Virus record (IMG/VR): IMGVR_UViG_3300043399_000524 | Coordinates: 1-64,000 of that record | Strand: one strand, 5' to 3' | From: a virus | DNA: 64,000 nt | Shown here: positions 3,001 to 17,799 of the stretch, piece by piece | Position numbering within the stretch: position 1 is the first letter of the stretch | How the letters are laid out: the number at the start of each line of letters is the position of its first letter | Translations under genes and position numbers: made by a program | The notes under the pieces: generated by a model | What the model was told of the DNA's origin: nothing | Databases searched by the model: none | Seen by the model: only the letters and a program-made list of their open reading frames with translations

Positions 3001-4716
3001 GAGTGTGCCGGTGGAAATTTTAATTCAAGTCAAACTAATTGCAATAATACTTTTATAGGTTTGCGGGCTGGTTATTATGCTCGAGGTTCTAGTAATACTT
3101 TGATAGGTAATGAAGCTGGATGTAATGTCTTAGGTGACAACAACATTTATATAGGTTTTAATGCCGGTAAATGTGCCGGTACAAGTAGTAACAACAACTT
3201 TTTTGGTTTTTGCACCGGCTTTAGACAATCTGGCGGCGGCGGCAATAATTTCTTTGGTTGCTGTGCTGGTGTATGTAGTACCAGTAGCAGTAACAACAAC
3301 TTCTTTAGTCAATCTGCCGGCCGTGAGACTACCACCGGTAGTAACAACAACTTTTTTGGTTCTTGCGCAGGTCTTACCAATACTACCGGATGTAACAACA
3401 ACTTTTTTGGTTGTAATGCTGGTTTTTCTAACACTACTGGTAACTTCAACACCTTTATTGGAAATTATGCTGGTAGAGCTAACACTAGCGGTGCCAACAA
3501 CACCTTTATTGGCGACTGTGCTGGTAGGTGCAACACTACTGGTTGTTACAACTTCTTTGTTGGGCAGTGTGCTGGTTGGAGAACATCTACAGGTTGTCAC
3601 AACATTTTTATTGGTCGTAGCACTGGCCGCTGTAACACCACTGGAGCTAACAACACTTTCTTTGGTGGTTATGCTGGCTGGCAGAATACCACTGGCAGCA
3701 ATAACTTCTTTGTCGGGTGCGCGACCGGCGGCTCGAACACCACCGGCTCATACAACTTCTTTGCTGGTCAGTGTGCTGGTTTTTCTAACACTACTGGTAA
3801 CTTCAATACCTTTATTGGTAACCAAGCAGGTTATTCAAACACAATTGGCACCGGCAACTTCTTTGCTGGTCGATGTGCCGGTTATAGTAACACTGCAAGT
3901 CACAATATTTTCATGGGTATTCTAGCTGGTTGGCGCAACACAACTGGAACTCTTAACGTTTTCATAGGTCGATATGCTGGTTGCTGCAATACAGGAGGAC
4001 AAGGCAACATCTTTATCGGACAATACACCGGCCGTGTTAATACAACTGGAAACCAAAACAACTTCTTAGGTCGTCAAGCTGGTTGCGCCAACACAACCGG
4101 GTGCGCCAACAACATTTTTGGGTGGAGTGCTGGTAGCAGCAACACTATTGGTAACAGCAACAACTTCTTTGGTCAAAGTGCCGGCTTATGCAACACTAGT
4201 GGTAGCTGTAACACGTTTATTGGCCACTATGCCGGATGCTGCAACACCACCGGTTTAAATAACTTATTCTTTGGTTGTTGTTCGGGTGTAGGTACGATTG
4301 GACTTGCCAATATCACTACAGAATCTAACCGTATCATTATGGGTAACAATGCTCATACATGTGCCCAAATACAAATTGCATGGACAACTGTTTCCGATAT
4401 TCGTGACAAGTGTATTTTTGGACGAGTACCACATGGTAAGGGATTCTTGCAAGGTCTTGAAACAATTGAATACGCATTTAAAGACCGCGAAACAGGTTGC
4501 ATCACAGATCCAGAAGGCAAGCGTAGATATGGATTCAGTGCTCAAAATATTCTAGTTGCTGAAGGTGATAAACCAGTTATTGTATCTACTGAAAACCCAG
4601 AAAAATTACAATTAACTGCGGAATACATTATCCCTGTATTAGTCAATGCAGTTAACGAGTTGTCTGCTGAGGTCGATGATTTGAGAGCAAGAATTATTGC
4701 GCTAGAAGCAAAATAA
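82..4716 (+). CDS. Giant repeat tail fibre with S74 chaperone domain
   Basis: A 1544-residue fibre built almost entirely of a degenerate 17-18 residue repeat of the type NNTFIGxxAGxxNTTG, from about residue 20 to 1400. Two stretches break the pattern: about residues 655-705, and an inserted domain at about 805-900. The C-terminal ~110 residues look like a peptidase S74 intramolecular chaperone: TVSDIRDK near residue 1436 offers the Ser and Lys five apart expected of the self-cleaving dyad, and a helical end follows (NELSAEVDDLRARI). Known S74 domains trimerise the fibre and cut themselves off. The repeats are unusually rich in Cys, Asn and Gly. ATG 82 is preferred over ATG 79 because AGGAG is then six bases upstream. 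Probable role: host-receptor binding. Confidence 0.88.
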   Translation: MAIKIGGNTVVTDNCNLQNIKNHNTNSTNFFAGVCAGQNNNASGINNVMIGSCAGQANTSGNNNTFIGLQAGQCNTTGSHNFFAGQCAGFSLTTACFNIFIGRRAGICNTGFSNIFLGDRAGEANTNAGQNNFIGAYAGNCNTTGTVNNFFGNYAGQSNTTGSNNNFFGFLAGPANTTGNHNNFFGEYAGRNNTTGSCNVMIGSRTGRYSVSGAFNVLIGRLAGSLTNGCNNIMVGTYAGRCSSSGSNNTFIGQCAGFCNTTGSNNFFAGRCAGYCNTTGSNNTFIGCNAGFSNTTSCDNVFIGNSAGAGRVNRYNVFIGSLAGACATGGLIECNIFIGRYSGYCAIGGYENFFAGGLTGYRNGGSSNTFIGWTAGTNNTTGSYNTFIGQSGGYCNSTGSSNTFIGARAGFFNSTGSHNNFFGFRGGYCNTTGSNNFFAGQCAGYCNTTGSNNTFIGNNAGLNNSNSSNNVFIGENAGRCTIGFSGRGHNNYIGQNAGCRNTFGRYNNFFGCSAGRSNTEGRNNNFFGEYAGACNTTGGFNNFLGPFSGYSGTTSFNNNFMGDSSGYYNTTGSYNNFFGLRAGFRNTTGCHNNFLGCSAGYCNTTGSHNFFAGLCAGYRNTDGINNTFIGCNAGCAVVSGVNNLIIGSYAGTAGLQNMIHLRAGTNCLQVCGAGVLTVNGAAVGGSSAFNICNSTNIVSCIGGTGGTGTHNFFAGQCAGLCNTTGSNNFFAGLNAGQSNSIGSHNFFAGFCAGRANTTGCYNTFIGKLAGYNNTNGGRNLFAGLCAGSYNVTGVDNIVIGLGGMSCSITGYNYYTNAGGGGYIPGAYDSFQTWTGTTLGCTISLFTFYQGGYITKVQLTSLTQLEGYGEYAWGLCGYTISSASGNAYSEPIYGLSGSSGSNNIILGNSAGKYNVANNNFFAGCCAGYCNVSGCNNTFIGSGSGRSNVSGNSNVYIGFNAGTNRICGSHNTFIGECAGGNFNSSQTNCNNTFIGLRAGYYARGSSNTLIGNEAGCNVLGDNNIYIGFNAGKCAGTSSNNNFFGFCTGFRQSGGGGNNFFGCCAGVCSTSSSNNNFFSQSAGRETTTGSNNNFFGSCAGLTNTTGCNNNFFGCNAGFSNTTGNFNTFIGNYAGRANTSGANNTFIGDCAGRCNTTGCYNFFVGQCAGWRTSTGCHNIFIGRSTGRCNTTGANNTFFGGYAGWQNTTGSNNFFVGCATGGSNTTGSYNFFAGQCAGFSNTTGNFNTFIGNQAGYSNTIGTGNFFAGRCAGYSNTASHNIFMGILAGWRNTTGTLNVFIGRYAGCCNTGGQGNIFIGQYTGRVNTTGNQNNFLGRQAGCANTTGCANNIFGWSAGSSNTIGNSNNFFGQSAGLCNTSGSCNTFIGHYAGCCNTTGLNNLFFGCCSGVGTIGLANITTESNRIIMGNNAHTCAQIQIAWTTVSDIRDKCIFGRVPHGKGFLQGLETIEYAFKDRETGCITDPEGKRRYGFSAQNILVAEGDKPVIVSTENPEKLQLTAEYIIPVLVNAVNELSAEVDDLRARIIALEAK
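130..4260 (+). repeat. Tandem coding repeats of the tail fibre
   Basis: About 70 imperfect units of roughly 51-54 bases. Several blocks are nearly identical at DNA level, for example the stretches around 1370-1440, 860-935, 1885-1925 and 2235-2275, each containing AACACCACCGGCTC or AACACCACTGGCTC. Such blocks could recombine and change fibre length. Sequence between the conserved cores varies, so this is a protein-coding repeat array and not a CRISPR array. Confidence 0.85.
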
Positions 4717-4734
4717 TATTATTTGGCTTCGACA

Positions 4735-4767
4735 AAGGACTGATATATAATGTATCAGTCCTTTTTT
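4735..4767 (+). terminator. Rho-independent terminator after the tail fibre
   Basis: AAGGACTGATA (4735-4745) pairs with TATCAGTCCTT (4753-4763) and a run of Ts follows. The loop contains TATAAT (4746-4751), with TTGGCT 17 bases upstream (4723-4728), so a sigma70-like promoter may overlap the hairpin and serve the next gene, whose ATG is at 4773. Confidence 0.8.
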
Positions 4768-4772
4768 ACTTT

Positions 4773-5417
4773 ATGAAGAAAATATTAATAGCTACACCCT
4801 GCCTTGACCAAAAAGTCGATGCCTATTTTGTACATAGTCTTTGCGAATCCATCAAATTAGGTTTAAAACACGATTTAGATATTCGGTGTGTTTTCTTAGC
4901 GAACGAAAGCATATTACCAATGGCTAGAAATGAATTATTTGCATTAGCGTATAAAGAAAATTACGACACAATGGTTTTTATTGACGATGATGAATATTGG
5001 GACGAACAAATACTTATCAATATAATTCAATCAGCAAAAGACGTAATCAGTGTTCCTGTTGTTAATAAAGGAGACAAAGAAATCACATTTAATGTTTGGT
5101 TGAAAAAAGATTTTGAAAAAGATGAAACAGATGGGTATATCAAAATAGATAAATGTGGTACTGGATTTCTAAAATTATCCAGAAAAGTTATAGTAGATTT
5201 ATGGGATTCGAACACAGAATTAACTTTCAGAAATAGAAAACTTAAAAATATTTGTGAATATACATATAAAAATGGAGATTTTGTGGGTGAAGATATTACA
5301 CTTACATACAAATTAAAAAATTTAGGTTACGATATATGGTTAAATCCCAATCACACAGTATCACACATTGGTAATAAAATGTACAAGGGCGATTTTAAGG
5401 TGCAAAACAAACTATGA
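4773..5417 (+). CDS. Glycosyltransferase, GT-A/family 2 type
   Basis: A 214-residue GT-A type glycosyltransferase. The N-terminus has the beta strand and PCLD loop expected for nucleotide-sugar binding. The acidic metal-binding motif is DDDE at residues 71-74, after the hydrophobic strand MVFI. FVGEDITL near residue 170 resembles the acceptor-side ED motif. It overlaps the next glycosyltransferase by four bases (ATGA), so the two are probably co-translated. It opens a sugar-modification module and may decorate virion proteins or a host glycan; the target cannot be read from the sequence. No clear Shine-Dalgarno precedes the ATG. Confidence 0.75.
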   Translation: MKKILIATPCLDQKVDAYFVHSLCESIKLGLKHDLDIRCVFLANESILPMARNELFALAYKENYDTMVFIDDDEYWDEQILINIIQSAKDVISVPVVNKGDKEITFNVWLKKDFEKDETDGYIKIDKCGTGFLKLSRKVIVDLWDSNTELTFRNRKLKNICEYTYKNGDFVGEDITLTYKLKNLGYDIWLNPNHTVSHIGNKMYKGDFKVQNKL

Positions 5418-6709
5418 TAGATGTTGTTATTCCAACAATGTGGTTTGTTTCTGGTTTCATTAAAACCTTAGAATCTTATGTAAACCATGATAAAATAAAC
5501 AAGGTTATTGTTGTTGACAATAATAAGTCCAATAGGCCTAATACAGAAATTTTAAAGCACAAAAAAATAGAATTAGTAAGCTATGGACGAAACATATATG
5601 TAAATCCAGCTTGGAATGAAGGATATTATCGTTCAAAATCAAAGATATTAGCAATCATTAATGATGATATAACTGTGTCAAACGAAGTGTTTAATATGGT
5701 CTATGACTTTGATTTTAAAGAAGGAGATTTAATTGGAGTTGATTTAAGAGGTCGTCAAGATAATTATAAAATTGATGATTTTATAGATACCAAAGAAGAA
5801 ATACTCAAATTAAATTATATAGATACACAACCCATTGGAGGTCAAGCCTGGGCGTTTGGTATTTGTATGTTTATGCTTAAAGATTCGTATAGTCTTATAC
5901 CAGATTTGTATCAAGTATGGTATGGTGATGACTATCTAGCACAAAGGGCAAAGAATGTTTACGCTATTAATTCTAATAAAATAAAAGGAAAAATTTCCGA
6001 AACTCTAACAAAATTTAAAGACCCGGATAGTGATATTAACAAAAGAATAGAACTTGATTCTAAAAATTTAGTAAAGTTTAATCATTTTAAAAATGGTGCA
6101 AAGTGGGACATACCCCATAACATGATTAATATGTATACAAATCACAGAAAAGCACTAGCAGAAGTAAAAGAAAAAGACATTTTTGAAATTGAATATAAAA
6201 AAGCCAAAGAAACATTTAGTGACATATACGAAAATGTACATATACTATATGACTTAGCCAAAAAATGTAAAACAGTAGTTGAAATGGGCGTCAGAACTGG
6301 AGTCAGCACTAGAGCATTTTTAAATACTGATGTTTCATTATTGTCATTCGATATTGAGTTAGACAATAATGTCAAAAAATTATTTGACTTAGCCAAACAA
6401 AAAGGTAAGAATGTACAGTATATTCAAGCTAATGTTTTGAATATAGAAATCGAAGAAACAGACTTATTGTTTATTGACACCTTGCACACTTATGACCAAT
6501 TAAGGCAAGAATTAAAATTGCATGGAAATCAAGCCCAAAAATACATAGCATTCCATGATACTCATACATTTGGGTTGAGAGGTGAAGTTGGTAATGACCA
6601 AAAAGGATTATTAACTGCGGTAATAGAATTTTTGATAGATAATCCTCATTGGAAATTCAAAATACATAAAACAAACAACAATGGTTTTACAGTGCTAGAA
6701 CGAACATAA
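5414..6709 (+). CDS. Glycosyltransferase-methyltransferase fusion
   Basis: A 431-residue two-domain protein. The N-terminal half is a GT-A/family 2 glycosyltransferase (VVIPT near residue 4, VVDNN at 33-37, NDD at 83-85, YGDDY near 170). From about residue 260 a class I methyltransferase follows, resembling the methyltransferase-24 group: EMGVRTGVST at 290-299 is the SAM-binding loop, SFDIE follows at 311-315, and DTLHTY (355-360) and HDTH (381-384) sit where this group has its metal or substrate residues. It would transfer a sugar and methylate the product or its carrier. It starts inside the stop of the previous glycosyltransferase. Confidence 0.75.
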   Translation: MIDVVIPTMWFVSGFIKTLESYVNHDKINKVIVVDNNKSNRPNTEILKHKKIELVSYGRNIYVNPAWNEGYYRSKSKILAIINDDITVSNEVFNMVYDFDFKEGDLIGVDLRGRQDNYKIDDFIDTKEEILKLNYIDTQPIGGQAWAFGICMFMLKDSYSLIPDLYQVWYGDDYLAQRAKNVYAINSNKIKGKISETLTKFKDPDSDINKRIELDSKNLVKFNHFKNGAKWDIPHNMINMYTNHRKALAEVKEKDIFEIEYKKAKETFSDIYENVHILYDLAKKCKTVVEMGVRTGVSTRAFLNTDVSLLSFDIELDNNVKKLFDLAKQKGKNVQYIQANVLNIEIEETDLLFIDTLHTYDQLRQELKLHGNQAQKYIAFHDTHTFGLRGEVGNDQKGLLTAVIEFLIDNPHWKFKIHKTNNNGFTVLERT

Positions 6710-9906: not shown

Positions 9907-9917
9907 TTGAGGTGACT

Positions 9918-10721
9918 ATGCCACAACGTATACTTGTCATGGGTCTTCCTGGAGCAGGAAAGACATATCTTTCACAACATATATTAGAACATCTACAAAA
10001 CAATGGTAAAAAAGTAGGTTGGCTAAATGCAGATGATGTGAGAAAAAAGTATAACGACTGGGATTTCAGCAAGGAAGGACGCATTCGCCAAAGTTTGCGT
10101 ATGCGTGAACTTGCTGATGCTATGGATCATGTTGATTTTGTAATCTGTGATTTTGTTGCACCGTTACCAGAAATGCGTAACAATTTCAAAGCAGATTGGA
10201 CTGTATGGGTCGATACCATAGATAAAGGTCGTTTTGAAGATACCAACAAAGTCTTTACGCCACCCGAAGTATATGATTTCAGAATTACTGAACAAAAATC
10301 AGAATGGTGGGGTGAGTTTATTGCTGCACACATGATTGACAATCGCAGACGTCCAGTATTTGATTGGAAAAAAGAAACAGTTCAAATGCTCGGCCGTTGG
10401 CAACCATGGCATGAAGGACATCGTGCATTATTTGATCGTGCGATTGTCAAAACTGGTCAAGTCGTGATACAAATTCGTGACTGTCAAGGATGGCAAGGTT
10501 CTAATCCTTTTGCTATTGATCAAGTTAAAAACTATATCAAACGAGATTTAGATCCTCTATATCAAGGTCAGTATGAGATTCAAGTTGTGCCAAACATTGT
10601 TGAAATTGTTTATGGTAGAGATGTAGGATATAAGATAAATAAAATAGAACTCACTGATGAAATACATCAAATATCAGCTACTAAAATCAGGGAGGAAATG
10701 AAAAACAAAGGTTTATTGTAA
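9918..10721 (+). CDS. APS-kinase-like / nucleotidyltransferase fusion
   Basis: A 267-residue protein. The N-terminus is a P-loop kinase resembling adenylylsulfate kinase: GLPGAGKT at 9-16, LNADDVR near 39-45, and the later CDFVAPLPEMR. From residue 157 a nucleotidyltransferase of the HxGH class follows (RWQPWHEGH at 160-168, ISATKIRE near the end). If the kinase acts on APS it would make PAPS for the sulfotransferase at 7644; the C-terminal domain might be an ATP-sulfurylase-like or NMN-type activity, which cannot be decided by eye. ATG 9918 is preferred over GTG 9912 because GAGG lies five bases upstream. Confidence 0.72.
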   Translation: MPQRILVMGLPGAGKTYLSQHILEHLQNNGKKVGWLNADDVRKKYNDWDFSKEGRIRQSLRMRELADAMDHVDFVICDFVAPLPEMRNNFKADWTVWVDTIDKGRFEDTNKVFTPPEVYDFRITEQKSEWWGEFIAAHMIDNRRRPVFDWKKETVQMLGRWQPWHEGHRALFDRAIVKTGQVVIQIRDCQGWQGSNPFAIDQVKNYIKRDLDPLYQGQYEIQVVPNIVEIVYGRDVGYKINKIELTDEIHQISATKIREEMKNKGLL

Positions 10722-11365
10722 TGTATCACTATGTTTATAAAACTACAAATAATGTAACTGGAAAAATATACATAGGAGCTCATAGTTCTAAAATACTTGA
10801 TGACGATTATCTCGGGTCCGGAAAAGCACTTAAAGATGCTATTAAAAAATACGGAAAAGAAAACTTCAGTCGTTGTATTTTAGAATTTTTTGATACAAGA
10901 GAAGAGGCATTTAAAAAAGAATCGTATCTTGTAACAGAGGACTTTATTAAAGAAGATACAAATTACAATATGTGTCCTGGAGGTTTGGGATCTACAATTA
11001 AAACAGAAGAATTTAAAAATAAAGTTTCTGAGAAACTAAAAGGTAGAGTTTTTACAGAAGAACATAGTAGAAAAAAATCTCTTGCCCAAACCGGTAGTAA
11101 AAACCATAGATATGGTAAGCCTAATCCGAACAATCCAAAATTGTCTGGTAGAGACAACGGGATGTTTAATAAAAATCATACTGAAGAAAGTAAAAAATTA
11201 ATGAGTCAGAATAGAAAACTTGTTAAAGTGGAGTATACTCCTGATCTTATTAAAAAGTTATCTTCTGCTTGTAAGGGGAAGTTATGGTATAATAATGGAA
11301 AGGTTTCTAAAAGATTTAAAGAAGGTGACCAACCGTCTGGATTTGCAAAAGGAAGACTCAGGTGA
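10721..11365 (+). CDS. GIY-YIG homing endonuclease (free-standing)
   Basis: A 214-residue endonuclease. HYVYKTTN at 3-10 and KIYIGAH at 15-21 give the GIY-YIG core, followed by the usual GSG loop and a catalytic Glu in KKESYL. The C-terminal half has lysine-rich NUMOD3-like DNA-binding repeats (TEEHSRKKS, GKPNPNNP, MFNKNHTEES). Its start overlaps the stop of the APS-kinase-like gene (TAATG), which suggests translational coupling and insertion at that gene's 3' end. Confidence 0.88.
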   Translation: MYHYVYKTTNNVTGKIYIGAHSSKILDDDYLGSGKALKDAIKKYGKENFSRCILEFFDTREEAFKKESYLVTEDFIKEDTNYNMCPGGLGSTIKTEEFKNKVSEKLKGRVFTEEHSRKKSLAQTGSKNHRYGKPNPNNPKLSGRDNGMFNKNHTEESKKLMSQNRKLVKVEYTPDLIKKLSSACKGKLWYNNGKVSKRFKEGDQPSGFAKGRLR

Positions 11366-11843: not shown

Positions 11844-12290
11844 GTGACTAATATTTTCCAACTTAATTATGATGAAAGATTGAAAAATTGGTATTTGCTT
11901 AGAAAGACCATTGAACAATCTGATATAAAAACAAAATGCCTAGAAACGGATAAATGGTGGCAACAAGCACCATTGGTAAACCATTACTTACATCCTCATG
12001 ATTTGGATAATTGGCCCAATCCTTGGGAACTTTTGGTAGAAAACAACTATTGTACTGTTGCAAGAGCATTAGGGATGTGTTATACTTTAATACTATTAGG
12101 AATTAAAAATATTGAGTTCGTTTTGGCTAAGAATGACAGTAATGAGGATGTGGTATTAGTCCTAGTTGACAACGCAAAATATATATTGAATTACTGGCCC
12201 AACACGGTGTTAAATAACAATCTAAGCGATTTTAAAGTAGTAGAAAAAATAGATATTAAAAGAATAATAGACAAAATAGGCAAAATATGA
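11844..12290 (+). CDS. Phage protein of unknown function before nrdA
   Basis: A 148-residue protein starting at GTG with only a weak upstream AGAAAG. It is rich in Trp, Asn and Leu (KWWQQAP, WPNPWELL). A central CTVARALGMCYTLILLGI segment looks helical, and a beta-rich end follows. The central part recalls transglutaminase-like folds, but no catalytic triad can be placed. It overlaps the nrdA start by four bases, so it is probably part of that operon. Confidence 0.6.
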   Translation: MTNIFQLNYDERLKNWYLLRKTIEQSDIKTKCLETDKWWQQAPLVNHYLHPHDLDNWPNPWELLVENNYCTVARALGMCYTLILLGIKNIEFVLAKNDSNEDVVLVLVDNAKYILNYWPNTVLNNNLSDFKVVEKIDIKRIIDKIGKI

Positions 12291-13807
12291 TAATTAACGT
12301 AACTAAGCGATCTGGGAAAAAAGAACCACTAAATCTAGAAAAATGGCAAGCTCAAGTTGCTAAAGTATGTAAAGGTATAGCAGATGTTAGCCCTAGCATG
12401 ATAGAAATAAAATCCCAACTACACTTTTACGATGGTATTACTACAAAAGAAATTGACGAAATAACATTGAGGGCAATTGTTGACCTAATAGATGTTGAAT
12501 CTAATCCAGAAATCGGACATACAAACTATCAATATGTAGCTGGTAAACAACGTATCAGTATGTTACGCAAAGACGTTTACGGGGACTATGAACCCCCTAG
12601 ATTGTATGAAATTGTAAAAACAAATATAGCGACTGGACTATACACCCCCGAACTATTAGAATGGTATACAGAAGAAGAATGGGATAAAATGGATGATATT
12701 CTTGACCATTCCAAAGATGAACAATATAGTTATGCTGCTATTGAGCAACTGATTGAAAAATATCTTGTTCGGAACCGTTCAACAAAACAAACATACGAAA
12801 CTCCACAAGTTCGCTATATGGTAGCCGCCGCTACTGTTATGCACAAGGAAGAGCCACAGTCGGCTCGTATGCGCCTAATTAAGGAATATTACAATGCAGC
12901 GTCTGATGGTCTATTTACTCTCGCTACTCCTGTTCTTGCTGGCCTTGGTACTCCCACCAAGCAATTTTCATCCTGTGTTCTTATTCGCAGCGACGATGAC
13001 CTTGATAGTATTTTTGCTAGTGGCGAAATGATGGCCAAGTATGCTAGCAAACGTGCTGGCATTGGACTTGAGATTGGTCGTTTACGTTCACTAGGTAGTC
13101 CGATTCGTGGTGGCGAAATCATGCACACCGGCATGATTCCCTTCTTAAAGAAATGGTTCGGTGATTTACGCAGTTGTTCACAAGGTGGTATTCGTAATGC
13201 TAGTGCTACAGTTTTCTATCCCATATGGCATCATCAATTTGATGACCTTATTGTTCTCAAAAACAATCAAGGAACAGAAGAAACTAGAGTCAGACACATG
13301 GATTACGGTGTTGTGCTTTCTGCATTCTTTTGGAGAAGATTCAAAAATAAAGAGAATATTACCTTCTTTGACCCTAACGAAGTTCCAGACTTATACGAAG
13401 CCTTCTATTCTAATACAGCGTTGTTCGAAGAACTATATGTTAAGTATGAAAAAAATAAGAGCCTCAGAAAAAAGGTTATGTCTGCGGAGGAAGTATTCAA
13501 AAGCGGCATCTTAAAAGAAAGAACGGATACCGGACGTATCTATCTAGTGTTCATTGATAATGTAATGAACCAAGGACCATTCGATCCTGAGTACCACACG
13601 ATTTACCAGTCAAATTTATGTTGCGAGATCCTACTTCCGACAGTTCCGTTTAAGTCATTAGATGATGAAGGCGAGTTCAAGTTGAATTTAGATGATGGTA
13701 CAGAAATAACTTTACCCGGACAGCATAAAGTGCTATTATCTAATGGAGAGAAAAAGAAAGTAAGAGAATTGACGGAAGAAGATGATATACAGGATTTGAT
13801 GATATGA
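12287..13807 (+). CDS. nrdA: Ribonucleotide reductase alpha, N-terminal fragment
   Basis: The first part of class Ia NrdA, which reduces ribonucleoside diphosphates. An ATP-cone-like region is at 1-90. C230 in QFSSC is the redox cysteine (Cys225 in E. coli). N443, C445 and E447 in SNLCCE are the radical-site residues. NrdA-like sequence ends at residue 463 (DDEGE). Residues 464-506 are foreign and look like an intein block B (ITLPGQHKVLL, then KKVRELTEEDDI). The second redox cysteine is on the separate fragment at 14498, so the two must assemble to be active, as shown for the split NrdA of Aeromonas phage Aeh1. Confidence 0.9.
   Translation: MIINVTKRSGKKEPLNLEKWQAQVAKVCKGIADVSPSMIEIKSQLHFYDGITTKEIDEITLRAIVDLIDVESNPEIGHTNYQYVAGKQRISMLRKDVYGDYEPPRLYEIVKTNIATGLYTPELLEWYTEEEWDKMDDILDHSKDEQYSYAAIEQLIEKYLVRNRSTKQTYETPQVRYMVAAATVMHKEEPQSARMRLIKEYYNAASDGLFTLATPVLAGLGTPTKQFSSCVLIRSDDDLDSIFASGEMMAKYASKRAGIGLEIGRLRSLGSPIRGGEIMHTGMIPFLKKWFGDLRSCSQGGIRNASATVFYPIWHHQFDDLIVLKNNQGTEETRVRHMDYGVVLSAFFWRRFKNKENITFFDPNEVPDLYEAFYSNTALFEELYVKYEKNKSLRKKVMSAEEVFKSGILKERTDTGRIYLVFIDNVMNQGPFDPEYHTIYQSNLCCEILLPTVPFKSLDDEGEFKLNLDDGTEITLPGQHKVLLSNGEKKKVRELTEEDDIQDLMI
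13676..13807 (+). other. Intein-like N-terminal remnant fused to NrdA
   Basis: Codons 464-506 of the nrdA fragment have no place in NrdA. They resemble the Hint block B region of inteins (strand, loop, HKV, DG-like turn, VREL, acidic DDI). The block A nucleophile (Cys or Ser start) is absent, so splicing looks impossible. Confidence 0.55.
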
Positions 13808-14511
13808 CACAAGCATTCGTTTATGTTTGGAAAAACACAAAATCTTTAAGGTGGTATCTAGGATCACATACTAGAAAAAATTGTCATCCAAATAATGGAT
13901 ATATTTGTTCTAGTAAAATAGTAAAACCATTAATAAAACAAAACCCTGAAGAATGGCAAAGAACAATTTTGGCAATCGGAACTCCTAGTGAAATGCTAGC
14001 TTTAGAGGCTGAATTATTAGAAATGTTAGATGCAAAGCATGATGTGCGAAGTTTTAATATGCATAATGGAGATGGCAAATTCACAACATTGGGTATTAGT
14101 TTTATCCCAGTTAACAAAGGCAAACCTAGTCCAAGAAGAGGATTACCTAATCCGGGTGTTTCTATTGCCCTTAAAGGAAAAGCACCCCATAATAAAGGAA
14201 AGCCTAGCCCAAGAAAAGGGGTACCAAATGAAAAAACAAGCATTAAATTAAAAGGTAAAAAACAACCAACAGTTTGCAGAATTATTGACCAACAGGAAAT
14301 GAGTGTATCAAATTTTCTTAAATGGTGCAAAAATGAAGATTTTCCTAACCTAAAGTTAAAGAAAAGCACAAACATGTCTGTTGCCAAAAAAGGAGTGCTA
14401 ATGCGAAAAGTGGCATGTCCGCATTGTAATAAAATAGGTGGCGTAAGCAGAATGAAACAATACCATTTTGATAATTGTAAATCACTGAAGGAAGAATATG
14501 AAAATAATTAA
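13804..14511 (+). CDS. GIY-YIG homing endonuclease splitting nrdA
   Basis: A 235-residue endonuclease. AFVYVWKN at 3-10 and RWYLGSH at 15-21 form the variant GIY-YIG core. MLALEAELLEML near 60-71 carries the catalytic Glu. NUMOD3-like repeats follow (NKGKPSPRRGLPNPG, then a second copy), and a C-terminal CPHC...HFDNC zinc-finger motif ends it. It starts inside the stop of the nrdA N-fragment (ATGA) and overlaps the C-fragment start by 14 bases. The endonuclease at 50895 shares the same C-terminal zinc motif. Confidence 0.88.
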   Translation: MTQAFVYVWKNTKSLRWYLGSHTRKNCHPNNGYICSSKIVKPLIKQNPEEWQRTILAIGTPSEMLALEAELLEMLDAKHDVRSFNMHNGDGKFTTLGISFIPVNKGKPSPRRGLPNPGVSIALKGKAPHNKGKPSPRKGVPNEKTSIKLKGKKQPTVCRIIDQQEMSVSNFLKWCKNEDFPNLKLKKSTNMSVAKKGVLMRKVACPHCNKIGGVSRMKQYHFDNCKSLKEEYENN

Positions 14512-14539
14512 AAAAGAGTGTGTTAGAAAAGTACCAAAA
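14498..14539 (+). other. Intein-like C-terminal remnant
   Basis: Codons 1-14 of the second nrdA fragment. The wording MKIIKKE resembles the start of known split C-inteins, but the block F and terminal His-Asn are missing. The whole insert 13676-14539 is 864 bases, a multiple of three, and both NrdA parts lie in the same frame, as expected if they were once joined by an in-frame intein. Confidence 0.45.
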
Positions 14540-15469
14540 ATTGCACTGTGTACGCTGGGGAGTATAAATTGGGGAAGTTTTAGACACCCAGAAGATATGC
14601 GTAGGGCTTGCCGTATACTTCACCGTAGTCTTAACAATATCCTCGATTACCAAGATTTCTTGAGTATTCAGAGTAAACTATCTAATGATGAAATTCGTCC
14701 GTTAGGTATTGGTGTCACTAATTTAGCATACTGGCATGCAAAGCGTGGTTATAAGTATGGCGAAAAAGATGCACTACAGGATGTTAAGACATGGATGGAA
14801 CATCAAGCATACTATCTAACAGAAGCTAGTGTTGAATTGGCACAAGAAAGAGGCCGTTGCGTAGATAGTGACAATACATATTACGGTAAAGGCATATTCC
14901 CTTGGGAACGTAGAGCAAACGGTGTTAACGAACTTGCCAATTTTACACCAGAATTAAATTGGGAAGGTTTACGTGCTAATATGAGGGCATACGGAGTACG
15001 CAACGCTACACAAATGGCTATTGCTCCTGTTGAATCTAGTAGTGTTGTTATCAACTCCACAAATGGCATTGAAATGCCAATGAGTTTGATTACAGTGAAA
15101 GAAAGTAAAGCAGGAAGTTTTACCCAAGTTGTGCCTGAATATCATAAACTGAAAAATAAGTACCAGCTGATGTGGGAACAGAAAGATTGCGATGGATATT
15201 TGAAAACGGCAGCAGTATTGCAAGCATATGTTGACCAAAGTATAAGTACAAATACTTTTTATAATCCTGCACACTTTGAAGGTCGTAAAGTACCTACGAC
15301 ATTGATTGCCAAAAATCTAATGCAATCGCAAATGTGGGGTATTAAGACATTCTATTATAGCTTGATTAACAAGCAAGGTGCCAAGGCTCAAGACGAGCAA
15401 GAGATACCACTAATGATTACACAAGAAGAAGATTTTGATGATGCTGATTGCGAAGCATGTAAGCTCTAA
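14498..15469 (+). CDS. nrdA: Ribonucleotide reductase alpha, C-terminal fragment
   Basis: The second part of NrdA, 323 residues. The first 14 residues (MKIIKKECVRKVPK) are not NrdA-like and resemble the start of a split C-intein. NrdA sequence resumes at IALC, and C18 equals the second redox cysteine (Cys462 in E. coli). VESSSVV and NSTNGIEMP line the substrate site. Y286-Y287 in TFYYS are the radical-transfer tyrosines. The shuttle cysteines are C318 and C321 in the CEACKL tail. Together the two NrdA parts total about 772 residues, close to the E. coli length. nrdB follows eight bases later. Confidence 0.9.
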   Translation: MKIIKKECVRKVPKIALCTLGSINWGSFRHPEDMRRACRILHRSLNNILDYQDFLSIQSKLSNDEIRPLGIGVTNLAYWHAKRGYKYGEKDALQDVKTWMEHQAYYLTEASVELAQERGRCVDSDNTYYGKGIFPWERRANGVNELANFTPELNWEGLRANMRAYGVRNATQMAIAPVESSSVVINSTNGIEMPMSLITVKESKAGSFTQVVPEYHKLKNKYQLMWEQKDCDGYLKTAAVLQAYVDQSISTNTFYNPAHFEGRKVPTTLIAKNLMQSQMWGIKTFYYSLINKQGAKAQDEQEIPLMITQEEDFDDADCEACKL

Positions 15470-15477
15470 GGAATAAC

Positions 15478-16578
15478 ATGTCCAAACAACAATATAATTT
15501 AAACACAAAGACAGACTATCTACAACGTAAAATGTTCTTAGACCCACAGGGTCCTGTAACTATTCAGCGTTTTGAAGAAGTAAAATATAAAAAGGTTGCT
15601 GACTTTGAACAAACAGCACGAGGATTCTTTTGGGTTCCAGAAGAAATTTCTCTGACCAAAGATGCAAACGACTTTAAAGAAGCCAGTGATACAGTTAAGC
15701 ATATCTTTACTAGCAACCTATTGCGACAAACAGCATTAGATTCTTTGCAAGGGCGTGGCCCCAGTCAAATCTTTACACCTGTTGTAAGTTTGCCTGAACT
15801 AGAAGCATTGGTGTATAATTGGACATTCTTTGAAACTAATATCCACAGTCGCAGCTATAGCCATATCATTCGTAACATCTACAACGTGCCTAAGGAAGTA
15901 TTCAACACTATCCATGACACTAAAGAGATTGTTGAAATGGCAAGTAGTGTTGGTAAGTATTATGATGATTTGCACCAAATTAATTGCCGCAAAGAAATGG
16001 GCGAGAATATTAAAGAAGCAGACCACATCAAAGCAATTTGGTTAGCATTGCATGCCAGCTATGCACTAGAAGCCTTCCGTTTCATGGTATCATTTGCTAC
16101 AAGTTTGGCAATGGTAGAAAACAAAATCTTTATTGGTAACGGTAATATTATTAGTTTAATTCTACAAGACGAACTATTACATAAAGGTTGGACTGCATTC
16201 TTAATTAACCAAGTTGTTAAAGAAGATCCTCGATTTGCTAAAGTTGCAGAAGAAACTAAAGACGAAGTTTACAAGATTTACTTAGATGTTATCCGTGAAG
16301 AAAAAGCATGGGCTGATTATCTATTCAAGTTCGGTCCTGTTATTGGATTAAACGCAACAGTATTAAAAGATTTTGTTGACTATACAGCAGCAGGTGCATT
16401 AAAAGAAATCGGCATTAAATATAGTGAACCACATCCAAAGAGTACTCCTATTCCTTGGTTCAACAAACATTCTGATACTAGCAAGAAACAAACAGCACTA
16501 CAAGAAAACGAATCTACAAACTATGTCATTGGTGTTATGAGCGATGCGATTGACTACGATGAACTACCGAATTTATAA
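15478..16578 (+). CDS. nrdB: Ribonucleotide reductase beta subunit
   Basis: Class Ia NrdB, 366 residues, the di-iron tyrosyl-radical subunit. D88, E119 and H123 are first-shell metal ligands, and Y127 in HSRSY is the radical tyrosine (Tyr122 in E. coli). Further ligands lie in KAIWLALHASYALEAFRF and LILQDELLHK. The gene follows the nrdA C-fragment with an AAGGA ribosome-binding site. The C-terminus (YDELPNL), which docks on NrdA, is acidic as expected. Confidence 0.95.
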   Translation: MSKQQYNLNTKTDYLQRKMFLDPQGPVTIQRFEEVKYKKVADFEQTARGFFWVPEEISLTKDANDFKEASDTVKHIFTSNLLRQTALDSLQGRGPSQIFTPVVSLPELEALVYNWTFFETNIHSRSYSHIIRNIYNVPKEVFNTIHDTKEIVEMASSVGKYYDDLHQINCRKEMGENIKEADHIKAIWLALHASYALEAFRFMVSFATSLAMVENKIFIGNGNIISLILQDELLHKGWTAFLINQVVKEDPRFAKVAEETKDEVYKIYLDVIREEKAWADYLFKFGPVIGLNATVLKDFVDYTAAGALKEIGIKYSEPHPKSTPIPWFNKHSDTSKKQTALQENESTNYVIGVMSDAIDYDELPNL

Positions 16579-16590
16579 TAAGGAAACTAA

Positions 16591-17799
16591 ATGAAAAAAC
16601 GCAACTACACACAGGACACAGTGAAGAAGTTACAAGGATCTGTGCAAATCGAGCATACATTAGCAAAACTGGGTGCTGAGAAACTACGCCGTTTGTTGGC
16701 GACTGAGCCTTATGTCAATACATTGGGTGCATACAACGGGCAGCAAGCAGTTCAACATGCTAAAGCAGGACTAAAAGCAATTTATCTAAGTGGTTGGCAA
16801 GTAGCAGCCGCAAACAACACACAGAATACAACATATCCAGATCAATCTCTATATCCAGTAGATAGTGTTCCCCGTGTAGTTAAAGGTATAAACAACGCAT
16901 TCCGTCGTGCAGACCAAATCGAACACAGCGAAGGTCAAGTAACAACTGATTATTTCTTGCCTATCGTTGCTGATGCAGAAGCAGGATTTGGTGGCGCATT
17001 AAACGCATACGAGTTAATGAGTCATATGATTGAAGCAGGTGCAGCAGGTGTTCACTTTGAAGACCAACTTGCTAGTGAGAAAAAATGCGGTCATTTGGGA
17101 GGAAAAGTATTAGTCCCTACAAGTCAAATGATTCGCACATTAAATGCAGCACGACTAGCTGCCGATGTTGCGGGGGTTGATACTGTTATAATGGCACGAA
17201 CAGATGCTGAATCAGCTACACTAATTACTAGTGACCACGATTCATTAGACAAGGACTTTATTATAAATGAAAGAACAGAAGAAGGTTTTTACAAATTCAA
17301 AAATGGCATTGACGCTTGCATCGCTAGGGGTCTTGCTTATGCTCCCTACGCTGATTTACTATGGTTTGAAACATCAACACCTGATATCAAACAAGCCAAA
17401 AAGTTTGCCGACGCAATACACGCACAATACCCTGACCAAATGTTGGCCTATAACTGCTCCCCCAGTTTCAATTGGCGTAAATTCTTGTCAGTCGAAGAAT
17501 GTGAAACTTTCCAACGTGAACTAGGTGCTCTGGGTTATAAGTTCCAATTCATTACACTTGCGGGCTTTCATAGTGTAAACTTAGCTACTTTTGAATTAGC
17601 AGAAGCATATAAACAAAGAGGTATGGCTGGGTATAGCGAAATGCAAGAGCGTGAATTTGCCGCACAAGATCGCGGATTCACTACAGTTAAACATCAACGT
17701 GAAGTTGGTGTTGGTTATTTTGATTTAATTAGCGAAGCAGTCGGGTCTAAGTCAACTACTGCACTAAATACCAGTACAGAGTCAGACCAATTTCATTAA
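16591..17799 (+). CDS. aceA: Isocitrate lyase
   Basis: A 402-residue isocitrate lyase, which splits isocitrate into succinate and glyoxylate. KKCGH at 164-168 is the catalytic signature, with C166 as general acid. [37 protein letters not shown] and LAGFHS all match the family. It is somewhat shorter than the ~430-residue bacterial enzymes because the N-terminus is trimmed. Methylisocitrate lyase and PEP mutase are excluded by the signature and length. It sits in the same operon as nrdB (12 bases away) and glutaredoxin. A metabolic gene of host origin in a phage is unusual; the glyoxylate shunt or a one-carbon supply via glycine are possible roles. Confidence 0.93.

What the first reader, a model, noticed from the sequence alone, without database searches (positions are those of the whole stretch)
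12287..15469. nrdA in two pieces with intein-like remnants at both edges
The first NrdA part ends with 43 residues that look like an intein block B; the second starts with 14 residues like a split C-intein. Neither keeps the splicing residues. The 864-base insert is a multiple of three and both NrdA parts share a frame. A GIY-YIG endonuclease lies between. The arrangement recalls fractured genes with split inteins in metagenomes and the split NrdA of phage Aeh1. It may be a split intein that lost splicing while the two protein parts learned to assemble. The redox cysteines now sit on separate chains (C230 in one, C18 in the other).
Basis: partly seen in the sequence, partly recalled or inferred. 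Interest (0 to 1): 0.75.

Follow-up and report, generated by a model that had tools for sequence, protein, structure and literature searches.

The report
Split reductase gene with half-intein tails
A phage enzyme that makes DNA building blocks is encoded as two separate proteins, one ending in half of an intein domain that cannot splice; the same tail family turns up on a second, unrelated split phage enzyme, so it looks like a reusable docking tag that lets a gene broken by selfish DNA keep working.

Summary
nrdA is two genes (12287-13807 and 14498-15469) around a GIY-YIG homing endonuclease (13804-14511). The first carries a 43-residue extra C-terminal tail, the second a 14-residue extra N-terminal tail. 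At least 45 IMG/VR contigs share the split. The tails keep exactly 43 and 14 residues in 24 distinct inserts, although the DNA between them holds five kinds of endonuclease or none. The long tail is under the same purifying selection as NrdA. Profile comparison against shuffled controls, and a Foldseek search of its AlphaFold model, both match it to the block-B half of intein N-domains. The intein start (block A, nucleophile), the block-B Thr and the HN end are absent, so splicing is not expected. The short tail's likeness to a C-intein is no better than chance. A homologous tail occurs on split UvsW helicase in 58 Vibrio and 19 Dickeya phages, in the Vibrio phages read without an endonuclease. 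Tails and insert move between diverged nrdA genes as one unit. Best reading: a half-Hint docking module that reassembles fragmented enzymes without splicing. It works like the Aeh1 NrdA tails but belongs to a different tail family. Docking and activity are inferred, not shown.

The parts
12287..13675 (+). nrdA-a, NrdA residues 1-463: ATP cone, all-alpha domain, first half of the barrel, redox Cys230, thiyl-radical Cys445 (SNLC), Asn443, Glu447
   Evidence: Pfam/NCBIfam NrdA matches; catalytic columns conserved in 42-row alignment
13676..13804 (+). 43-residue half-Hint tail of NrdA-a (F464-I506); equals the block-B half of an N-intein without block A
   Evidence: hhalign to inteins 94.7% probability, above all 300 shuffles; AF2 model retrieves inteins as the top 16 PDB hits; pN/pS 0.197
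13804..14511 (+). GIY-YIG homing endonuclease, 235 aa, with a C-terminal CPHC...HFDNC zinc-finger-like motif; its ATG overlaps the nrdA-a stop (ATGA)
   Evidence: PHROG homing endonuclease E=9.6e-16; GIY-YIG profile score 43.8 against a shuffle maximum of 20.4
14488..14494 (+). AAGGAAG, Shine-Dalgarno-like sequence for nrdA-b, inside the 3' end of the endonuclease gene
   Evidence: read from sequence; inference
14498..14539 (+). 14-residue N-terminal tail of NrdA-b (MKIIKKECVRKVPK), same length in all relatives; overlaps the endonuclease stop by 14 bases
   Evidence: 24 distinct inserts; intein likeness not above chance
14540..15469 (+). nrdA-b, rest of the NrdA barrel: redox Cys18 (C462 of E. 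coli), Tyr-Tyr radical pathway, C-terminal CxxC
   Evidence: Pfam/NCBIfam; invariant columns
15478..16578 (+). nrdB, small subunit, intact and directly downstream
   Evidence: Pfam Ribonuc_red_sm E=2.6e-42

Best explanation
nrdA is a working gene in two pieces. Homing endonucleases that cut nrdA just before the strand carrying the second redox cysteine inserted there and broke the gene. The break is made harmless by a pair of tails. The 43-residue tail of NrdA-a is half of a Hint (intein) domain, without the nucleophile block and without an asparagine end, so no peptide bond is made. I infer that it folds as a small beta module which docks onto NrdA-b (through its 14-residue tail and/or the barrel edge) and holds the two chains together, so that each active site is built from both: C230 and C445 on one, C18, the tyrosine pair and CxxC on the other. 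The expected enzyme is (aa+ab)2 with NrdB, as in phage Aeh1. The tail pair travels with the insert between phages, outlives replacement or loss of the endonuclease, and exists on UvsW as well. Shown: the split, tail conservation and selection, half-Hint similarity, horizontal transfer of tails plus insert, endonuclease exchange, a second host gene. Inferred: docking, enzyme activity, ultimate origin from a split intein.
For: Same split in >=45 IMG/VR contigs. Tails exactly 43 and 14 aa in all 24 distinct inserts with both halves readable. N-tail pN/pS 0.197 equals the NrdA flanks (0.190 and 0.186). All NrdA catalytic residues kept; only one nrdA-a match in the 139-kb record. N-tail against inteins: hhalign 41.7, shuffle maximum 21.6; against a true split intein at another site of nrdA in L238: 38.7, maximum 21.0. 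AF2 model of the tail, built without inteins in the alignment and without templates: the top 16 of 350,542 PDB chains are inteins. Tails plus insert 98-100% identical at DNA level where flanks are 44-83% (L158/L160/L164; the low upstream value includes an intein in one partner); L157/L168 share insert and C-tail (98-100%) but keep N-tails at flank level (76%), so an endonuclease was swapped into an already tailed gene. Five endonuclease types lie between the same tails; L174/L175 have none and an ATGA overlap. UvsW tails against nrdA tails: 46.3, shuffle maximum 16.1; Vibrio K475, K362 and 144E46.1 have no endonuclease. Tail presence needs 5 changes on the NrdA-b tree (bootstrap 4-8).
Against: No biochemical data. 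The model of both chains joined by read-through was poor overall (mean pLDDT 49.6), so contact between the two tails was not seen. The single-tail model is only moderate (66.7) and the individual Foldseek E-values are weak (0.03-1). The C-tail has no significant likeness to C-inteins. UvsW tails match inteins only modestly (25.7, shuffle maximum 19.7).
Confidence: 0.7

Rival explanations
1. The tails are passive. The two halves reassemble through the RNR fold alone, and the tails persist because they lie in the homing unit (target or co-conversion tract) or serve translation.
For: The tails travel with the insert. The C-tail DNA has few silent changes (pS 0.446) and overlaps the endonuclease stop.
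Against: The N-tail evolves at protein level like the enzyme itself (pN/pS 0.197), has no length change in 24 inserts and persists where no endonuclease is left (L174; Vibrio UvsW). For Aeh1 the literature, recalled and not readable here (Crona 2011), reports that its tails are essential.
Confidence: 0.15
2. An active split intein joins the two parts by trans-splicing in an unusual way.
For: Hint similarity; an invariant block-B His; true split inteins at other nrdA sites in relatives.
Against: No room for block A: NrdA sequence runs directly into the tail at residue 464. The first tail residue is Phe; block-B Thr is replaced; no HN end; no C/S/T at the junction. UvsW tails also lack the His.
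Confidence: 0.03
3. An RNA intron (group I or II) is removed from the mRNA, and the tails are only read-through of intron sequence.
For: Endonucleases of this kind often sit in group I introns; the LIMEstone uvsW insert was annotated as an intron (PMC3296691).
Against: No Rfam intron in the window, in LIMEstone uvsW or in four relatives. The tails are conserved as protein. In L174 and Vibrio K475 the halves abut with ATGA, leaving nothing to splice.
Confidence: 0.03
4. The tail is not related to inteins; it is a convergent beta-hairpin module of unknown origin.
For: Short (43 aa). Pfam Intein_splicing matches are below the curated cut-off (best E 0.0013, 14 of 16 members). A profile search of PDB sequences found no intein.
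Against: Profile-profile score twice the best of 300 shuffles, still 33.2 with the S16 intein left out; inteins fill the top of an unbiased fold search.
Confidence: 0.07
5. The split gene is dead and decaying.
For: The gene is broken and the only nrdA-a found in the record.
Against: Purifying selection on both halves and the N-tail, catalytic residues kept, ribosome binding site and intact nrdB, many diverged relatives with the same split.
Confidence: 0.02

Closest known systems
Aeromonas phage Aeh1 NrdA-a / MobE / NrdA-b (Friedrich 2007; Crona 2011; reviewed in PMC2988022, PMC3267527)
   Same: nrdA split by a homing endonuclease in the same stretch of the gene; extra C-terminal tail on the first part and N-terminal tail on the second; PMC3267527 describes the active Aeh1 enzyme as an (aa+ab)2b2 complex.
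   Different: Aeh1 tails are a different family (score 8.3 to the window tails, no better than chance; 23.4 to the tails of IMG/VR L024 against a shuffle maximum of 14.7). HNH MobE instead of GIY-YIG, and nothing Hint-like in its tails.
Fractured genes with split inteins and free-standing endonucleases (Dassa 2009, recalled); here L029, L238, S16 and PM2 UvsW, WX1
   Same: Two extein genes around an endonuclease gene; the N-tail aligns with the last 40 residues of their N-inteins.
   Different: Those keep block A, block-B T/H and the C-intein HN plus nucleophile; the window's parts have none of these except the block-B His.
Split PolB of Methanothermobacter (Kelman 1999; cited in PMC5374615, details recalled)
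   Same: A polymerase in two chains that assemble without splicing; as I recall, split at an intein site.
   Different: Archaeal, another gene; no tail family shared between genes is known to me.
LIMEstone uvsW 'intron' I-LimI (PMC3296691)
   Same: UvsW-N ends in a homologous half-Hint tail; endonuclease between.
   Different: Annotated as an intron; no intron found. Another host gene.

Membership tests
Split intein | Block A with Cys/Ser nucleophile at intein residue 1 | tested here: not met
   NrdA core runs straight into the tail; first residue Phe, about 55 N-intein residues absent
Split intein | Block B T-x-x-H | tested here: not met
   P-G-Q-H in the window: Thr lost, His invariant in the nrdA tails of A1
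Split intein | C-intein blocks F/G ending HN before C/S/T | tested here: not met
   C-tail ends VPK|IALC; more diverged relatives GGR|VALC
Hint fold (as homology, not as function) | Sequence or fold similarity to inteins beyond chance | tested here: met
   300 shuffles; top 16 PDB hits inteins; N-tail only
Aeh1-type fragmented NrdA (works like) | nrdA in two ORFs with extra tails around a homing endonuclease, catalytic residues divided between the chains | tested here: met
Aeh1-type fragmented NrdA | Tails homologous to those of Aeh1 | tested here: not met
   score 8.3, prob 0.28%; L024 tails score 23.4 against Aeh1
Aeh1-type fragmented NrdA | Tails needed for assembly of an active enzyme | not testable with these tools
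   needs co-expression and activity assay
Group I or II intron | Intron RNA structure in the insert | tested here: not met
   no Rfam match

The most novel reading that the evidence does not exclude
Half-Hint tails are a mobile, gene-independent family of non-splicing docking modules. They descend from split inteins, are carried with changing homing endonucleases, and have been installed on at least two unrelated enzymes (NrdA, UvsW), turning gene breakage by selfish DNA into stable two-chain enzymes.
Probability: 0.5. Interest if true: 0.85.

Novelty: new variant of a known kind. Interest (0 to 1): 0.72.

Why it matters
Aeh1 NrdA was, as far as I could find, the one studied case in which tails reassemble an enzyme broken by a homing endonuclease, and the general question was left open (PMC2988022). 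Here a second tail family with a recognisable intein ancestry occurs in dozens of phages, on two unrelated genes, with changing endonucleases and even without any. That gives natural replicates for asking how a broken essential gene stays functional, a possible route from protein splicing to non-covalent assembly, and a candidate pair of short natural docking tags. Cultured Vibrio phages (such as 144E46.1) and Dickeya phages carry the UvsW version, so it is testable now.

Tried and rejected
Group I/II intron: no Rfam match. In-frame insert as a clue to a former fusion: relatives are in all frames, rejected. Kinship with the Aeh1 tails: rejected. C-tail as C-intein: no better than chance. PDB sequence profile search with the tail: only chance-like hits, ataxin-1 and ribosomal proteins. 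Cellular genomes: pattern matches but no relative. phrog_13169 'DNA polymerase' tail match: it rang in the control genomes, and among the phage records only hit the S16 UvsW intein. Klebsiella KaAlpha 'split helicase' is ordinary uvsW plus uvsW.1. Staphylococcus hits to the UvsW tail lie in structural or tail protein genes at E 0.3-1, taken as chance. S16, PM2, WX1 and CL2 hits are true inteins or N-inteins with block A. AF2 of the read-through two-chain protein finds the RNR fold but is too weak to show tail contacts.
Full report
OBSERVATION. The window lies in a 139,307-base virus record. nrdA is in two ORFs around a GIY-YIG endonuclease, as described. NrdA-a matches NrdA up to about residue 464 and NrdA-b from residue 14. 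Intact relatives read ...FKRLDDxxGRIALCTLGS; the window reads ...FKSLDDEGE | 43 aa | stop, then M + 13 aa | IALCTLGS. The insert is 864 bases, as stated. nrdB follows intact. The catalytic residues are all present but divided between chains: C230, N443, C445 and E447 on NrdA-a; C18, the Tyr pair and CxxC on NrdA-b.

DISTRIBUTION. Searches of IMG/VR found the same split in at least 45 contigs. Where both halves could be read, 24 distinct inserts all have an N-tail of exactly 43 residues and a C-tail of 14. The DNA between them differs: GIY-YIG with a zinc-finger-like end (window, L155, L157, L168, L187); another GIY-YIG sharing that end (L169, L163, L229; 48% over 33 residues); a SegE-like GIY-YIG whose C-terminal part resembles that of Aeh1 MobE (L165, L178, L184, L186; 39%, E=2e-21); an HNH gene on the opposite strand (L158, L160, L161, L164, L176, L185, L225); a third GIY-YIG (L193, L235, L236); and none (L174/L175, where the halves overlap by ATGA). 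No cellular genome carried the tail.

SELECTION AND MOVEMENT. Summed over pairs, the N-tail has pN/pS 0.197, its NrdA flanks 0.190 and 0.186, the C-tail 0.363. The C-tail's low silent rate fits its overlap with the endonuclease stop. Inserts including both tails are 98-100% identical between L158, L160 and L164, while downstream flanks are 56-83% (upstream 44-45% where one partner has an intein there). L081 (window) and L155 share 95% of the intervening DNA with flanks at 78-83%. L157 and L168 share intervening DNA and C-tail (98-100%), but their N-tails differ like the flanks (76%), so the endonuclease was replaced in an already tailed gene. On a tree of NrdA-b cores, tail presence needs 5 changes (bootstrap 4-8), against about 18 when labels are shuffled: clustered, yet gained or lost several times. 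The window's own NrdA-b is closest to intact NrdAs (L001, 89%) among the rows compared.

WHAT THE TAIL IS. Pfam Intein_splicing matches 14 of 16 tails, best E 0.0013, below its curated cut-off. Profile-profile comparison of 16 tails with five inteins from these phages gives 94.7% probability and score 41.7; the best of 300 column shuffles gives 21.6; leaving out the S16 intein still gives 33.2. Against one N-intein half found at another nrdA site in L238 the score is 38.7 (shuffle maximum 21.0). AlphaFold2 on the tail with 20 relatives, no inteins in the alignment and no templates, gives five strands (mean pLDDT 66.7; 71-80 in the last four blocks). Foldseek of that model against 350,542 PDB chains returns inteins as the first 16 hits, led by the Npu DnaE split intein (E 0.033, prob 0.99), several at 1.3-2.0 A over 37-42 residues. 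Each E-value alone is weak; the run of inteins is the evidence. The aligned part is the block-B half of the N-intein. Missing are block A with its nucleophile, the block-B Thr, and the C-intein HN with C/S/T after it. The 14-residue C-tail cannot be tied to C-inteins (50 of 200 shuffles as high).

A SECOND HOST GENE. tblastn with the tail hit UvsW of Dickeya phage LIMEstone1 and of Salmonella phage S16. S16 is a true split intein. LIMEstone UvsW is not: its N-part ends in a tail that matches nrdA tails (35.5, shuffle maximum 17.6), lacks block A, and is followed by an HNH gene and a C-part starting MKPTK. Intact relatives place the junction in EEGED^ITLLASYG. Vibrio phages K475, K362 and 144E46.1 have UvsW split at the same place with a homologous tail, no endonuclease, and an ATGA overlap. 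One tblastn finds this tail in 58 Vibrio and 19 Dickeya phage records. An IMG/VR phage (L252/L253) has both a true C-intein and the half-Hint tail in one UvsW. UvsW tails as a set match nrdA tails with score 46.3 against a shuffle maximum of 16.1, and inteins with 25.7 against 19.7.

ALTERNATIVES. No intron RNA was found in the window, LIMEstone or four relatives, although LIMEstone's was annotated as an intron (PMC3296691). Splicing as a protein is not expected for the reasons above. A dead gene does not fit the selection data. The strongest rival is that the tails are passive and the RNR fold alone reassembles; only experiments can decide.

COMPARISON. It works like the split NrdA of Aeh1, described as an active (aa+ab)2b2 enzyme (PMC3267527, PMC2988022). 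The Aeh1 tails read here are another family: they match IMG/VR L024 tails (23.4, shuffle maximum 14.7) but not the window tails (8.3). So the same stretch of nrdA has been broken and tailed at least twice in different ways. The original Aeh1 and fractured-gene papers (Friedrich 2007, Crona 2011, Dassa 2009) could not be read here and are used from memory and through reviews. Searches of the open library found no description of half-Hint assembly tails; subscription papers were not searched.

LIMITS. The two-chain read-through model was poor (mean pLDDT 49.6), so tail-tail contact is unproven; Foldseek still recognised it as RNR. Origin from a split intein at this exact site is not shown: the more diverged relatives read (E)GR|VALC, giving no C/S/T at the junction, and no splicing intein was found there. 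The tail may instead have come from an intein at another site or gene.

Noticed in passing
16591-17799: A full isocitrate lyase gene (Pfam ICL E=1.9e-102) directly after nrdB; in the phage collection only 9 records match, the best being Phage C48C1 at 64%, and several others look like bacterial contigs. An unusual metabolic gene for a phage.
   Followed up: partly
10721-11365: Second GIY-YIG endonuclease (SegE-like, NUMOD3) upstream of nrdA, free-standing, directly after the kinase/adenylyltransferase ORF 9912-10721.
   Followed up: partly
11844-12290: 148-aa ORF just before nrdA, conserved in the same place in L072, L084 and L024, no Pfam match.
   Followed up: no
L024 6437-8927; L093: IMG/VR nrdA split with Aeh1-like tails; L024 has no endonuclease and the two ORFs nearly abut, so Aeh1-type tails also outlive their endonuclease.
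   Followed up: partly
L090, L083, L085, L229: nrdA of these phages takes inserts at four places or more: DLRSC|SQGG inteins, SNLC|CEIL inteins (cis and split), the half-Hint split, and a VES|S split intein; L090 carries several at once.
   Followed up: no
L178 6205-6981 and Aeh1 MobE (L200): A GIY-YIG and an HNH endonuclease in the same stretch of nrdA share their C-terminal, presumably DNA-binding, region (39%, E=2e-21), as do two GIY-YIG families with a shared zinc-finger-like end: nuclease domains swapped on one targeting domain.
   Followed up: partly
L252, L253 around 3332-5507: UvsW with a true C-intein at one site and a half-Hint tail split plus HNH gene at another.
   Followed up: partly
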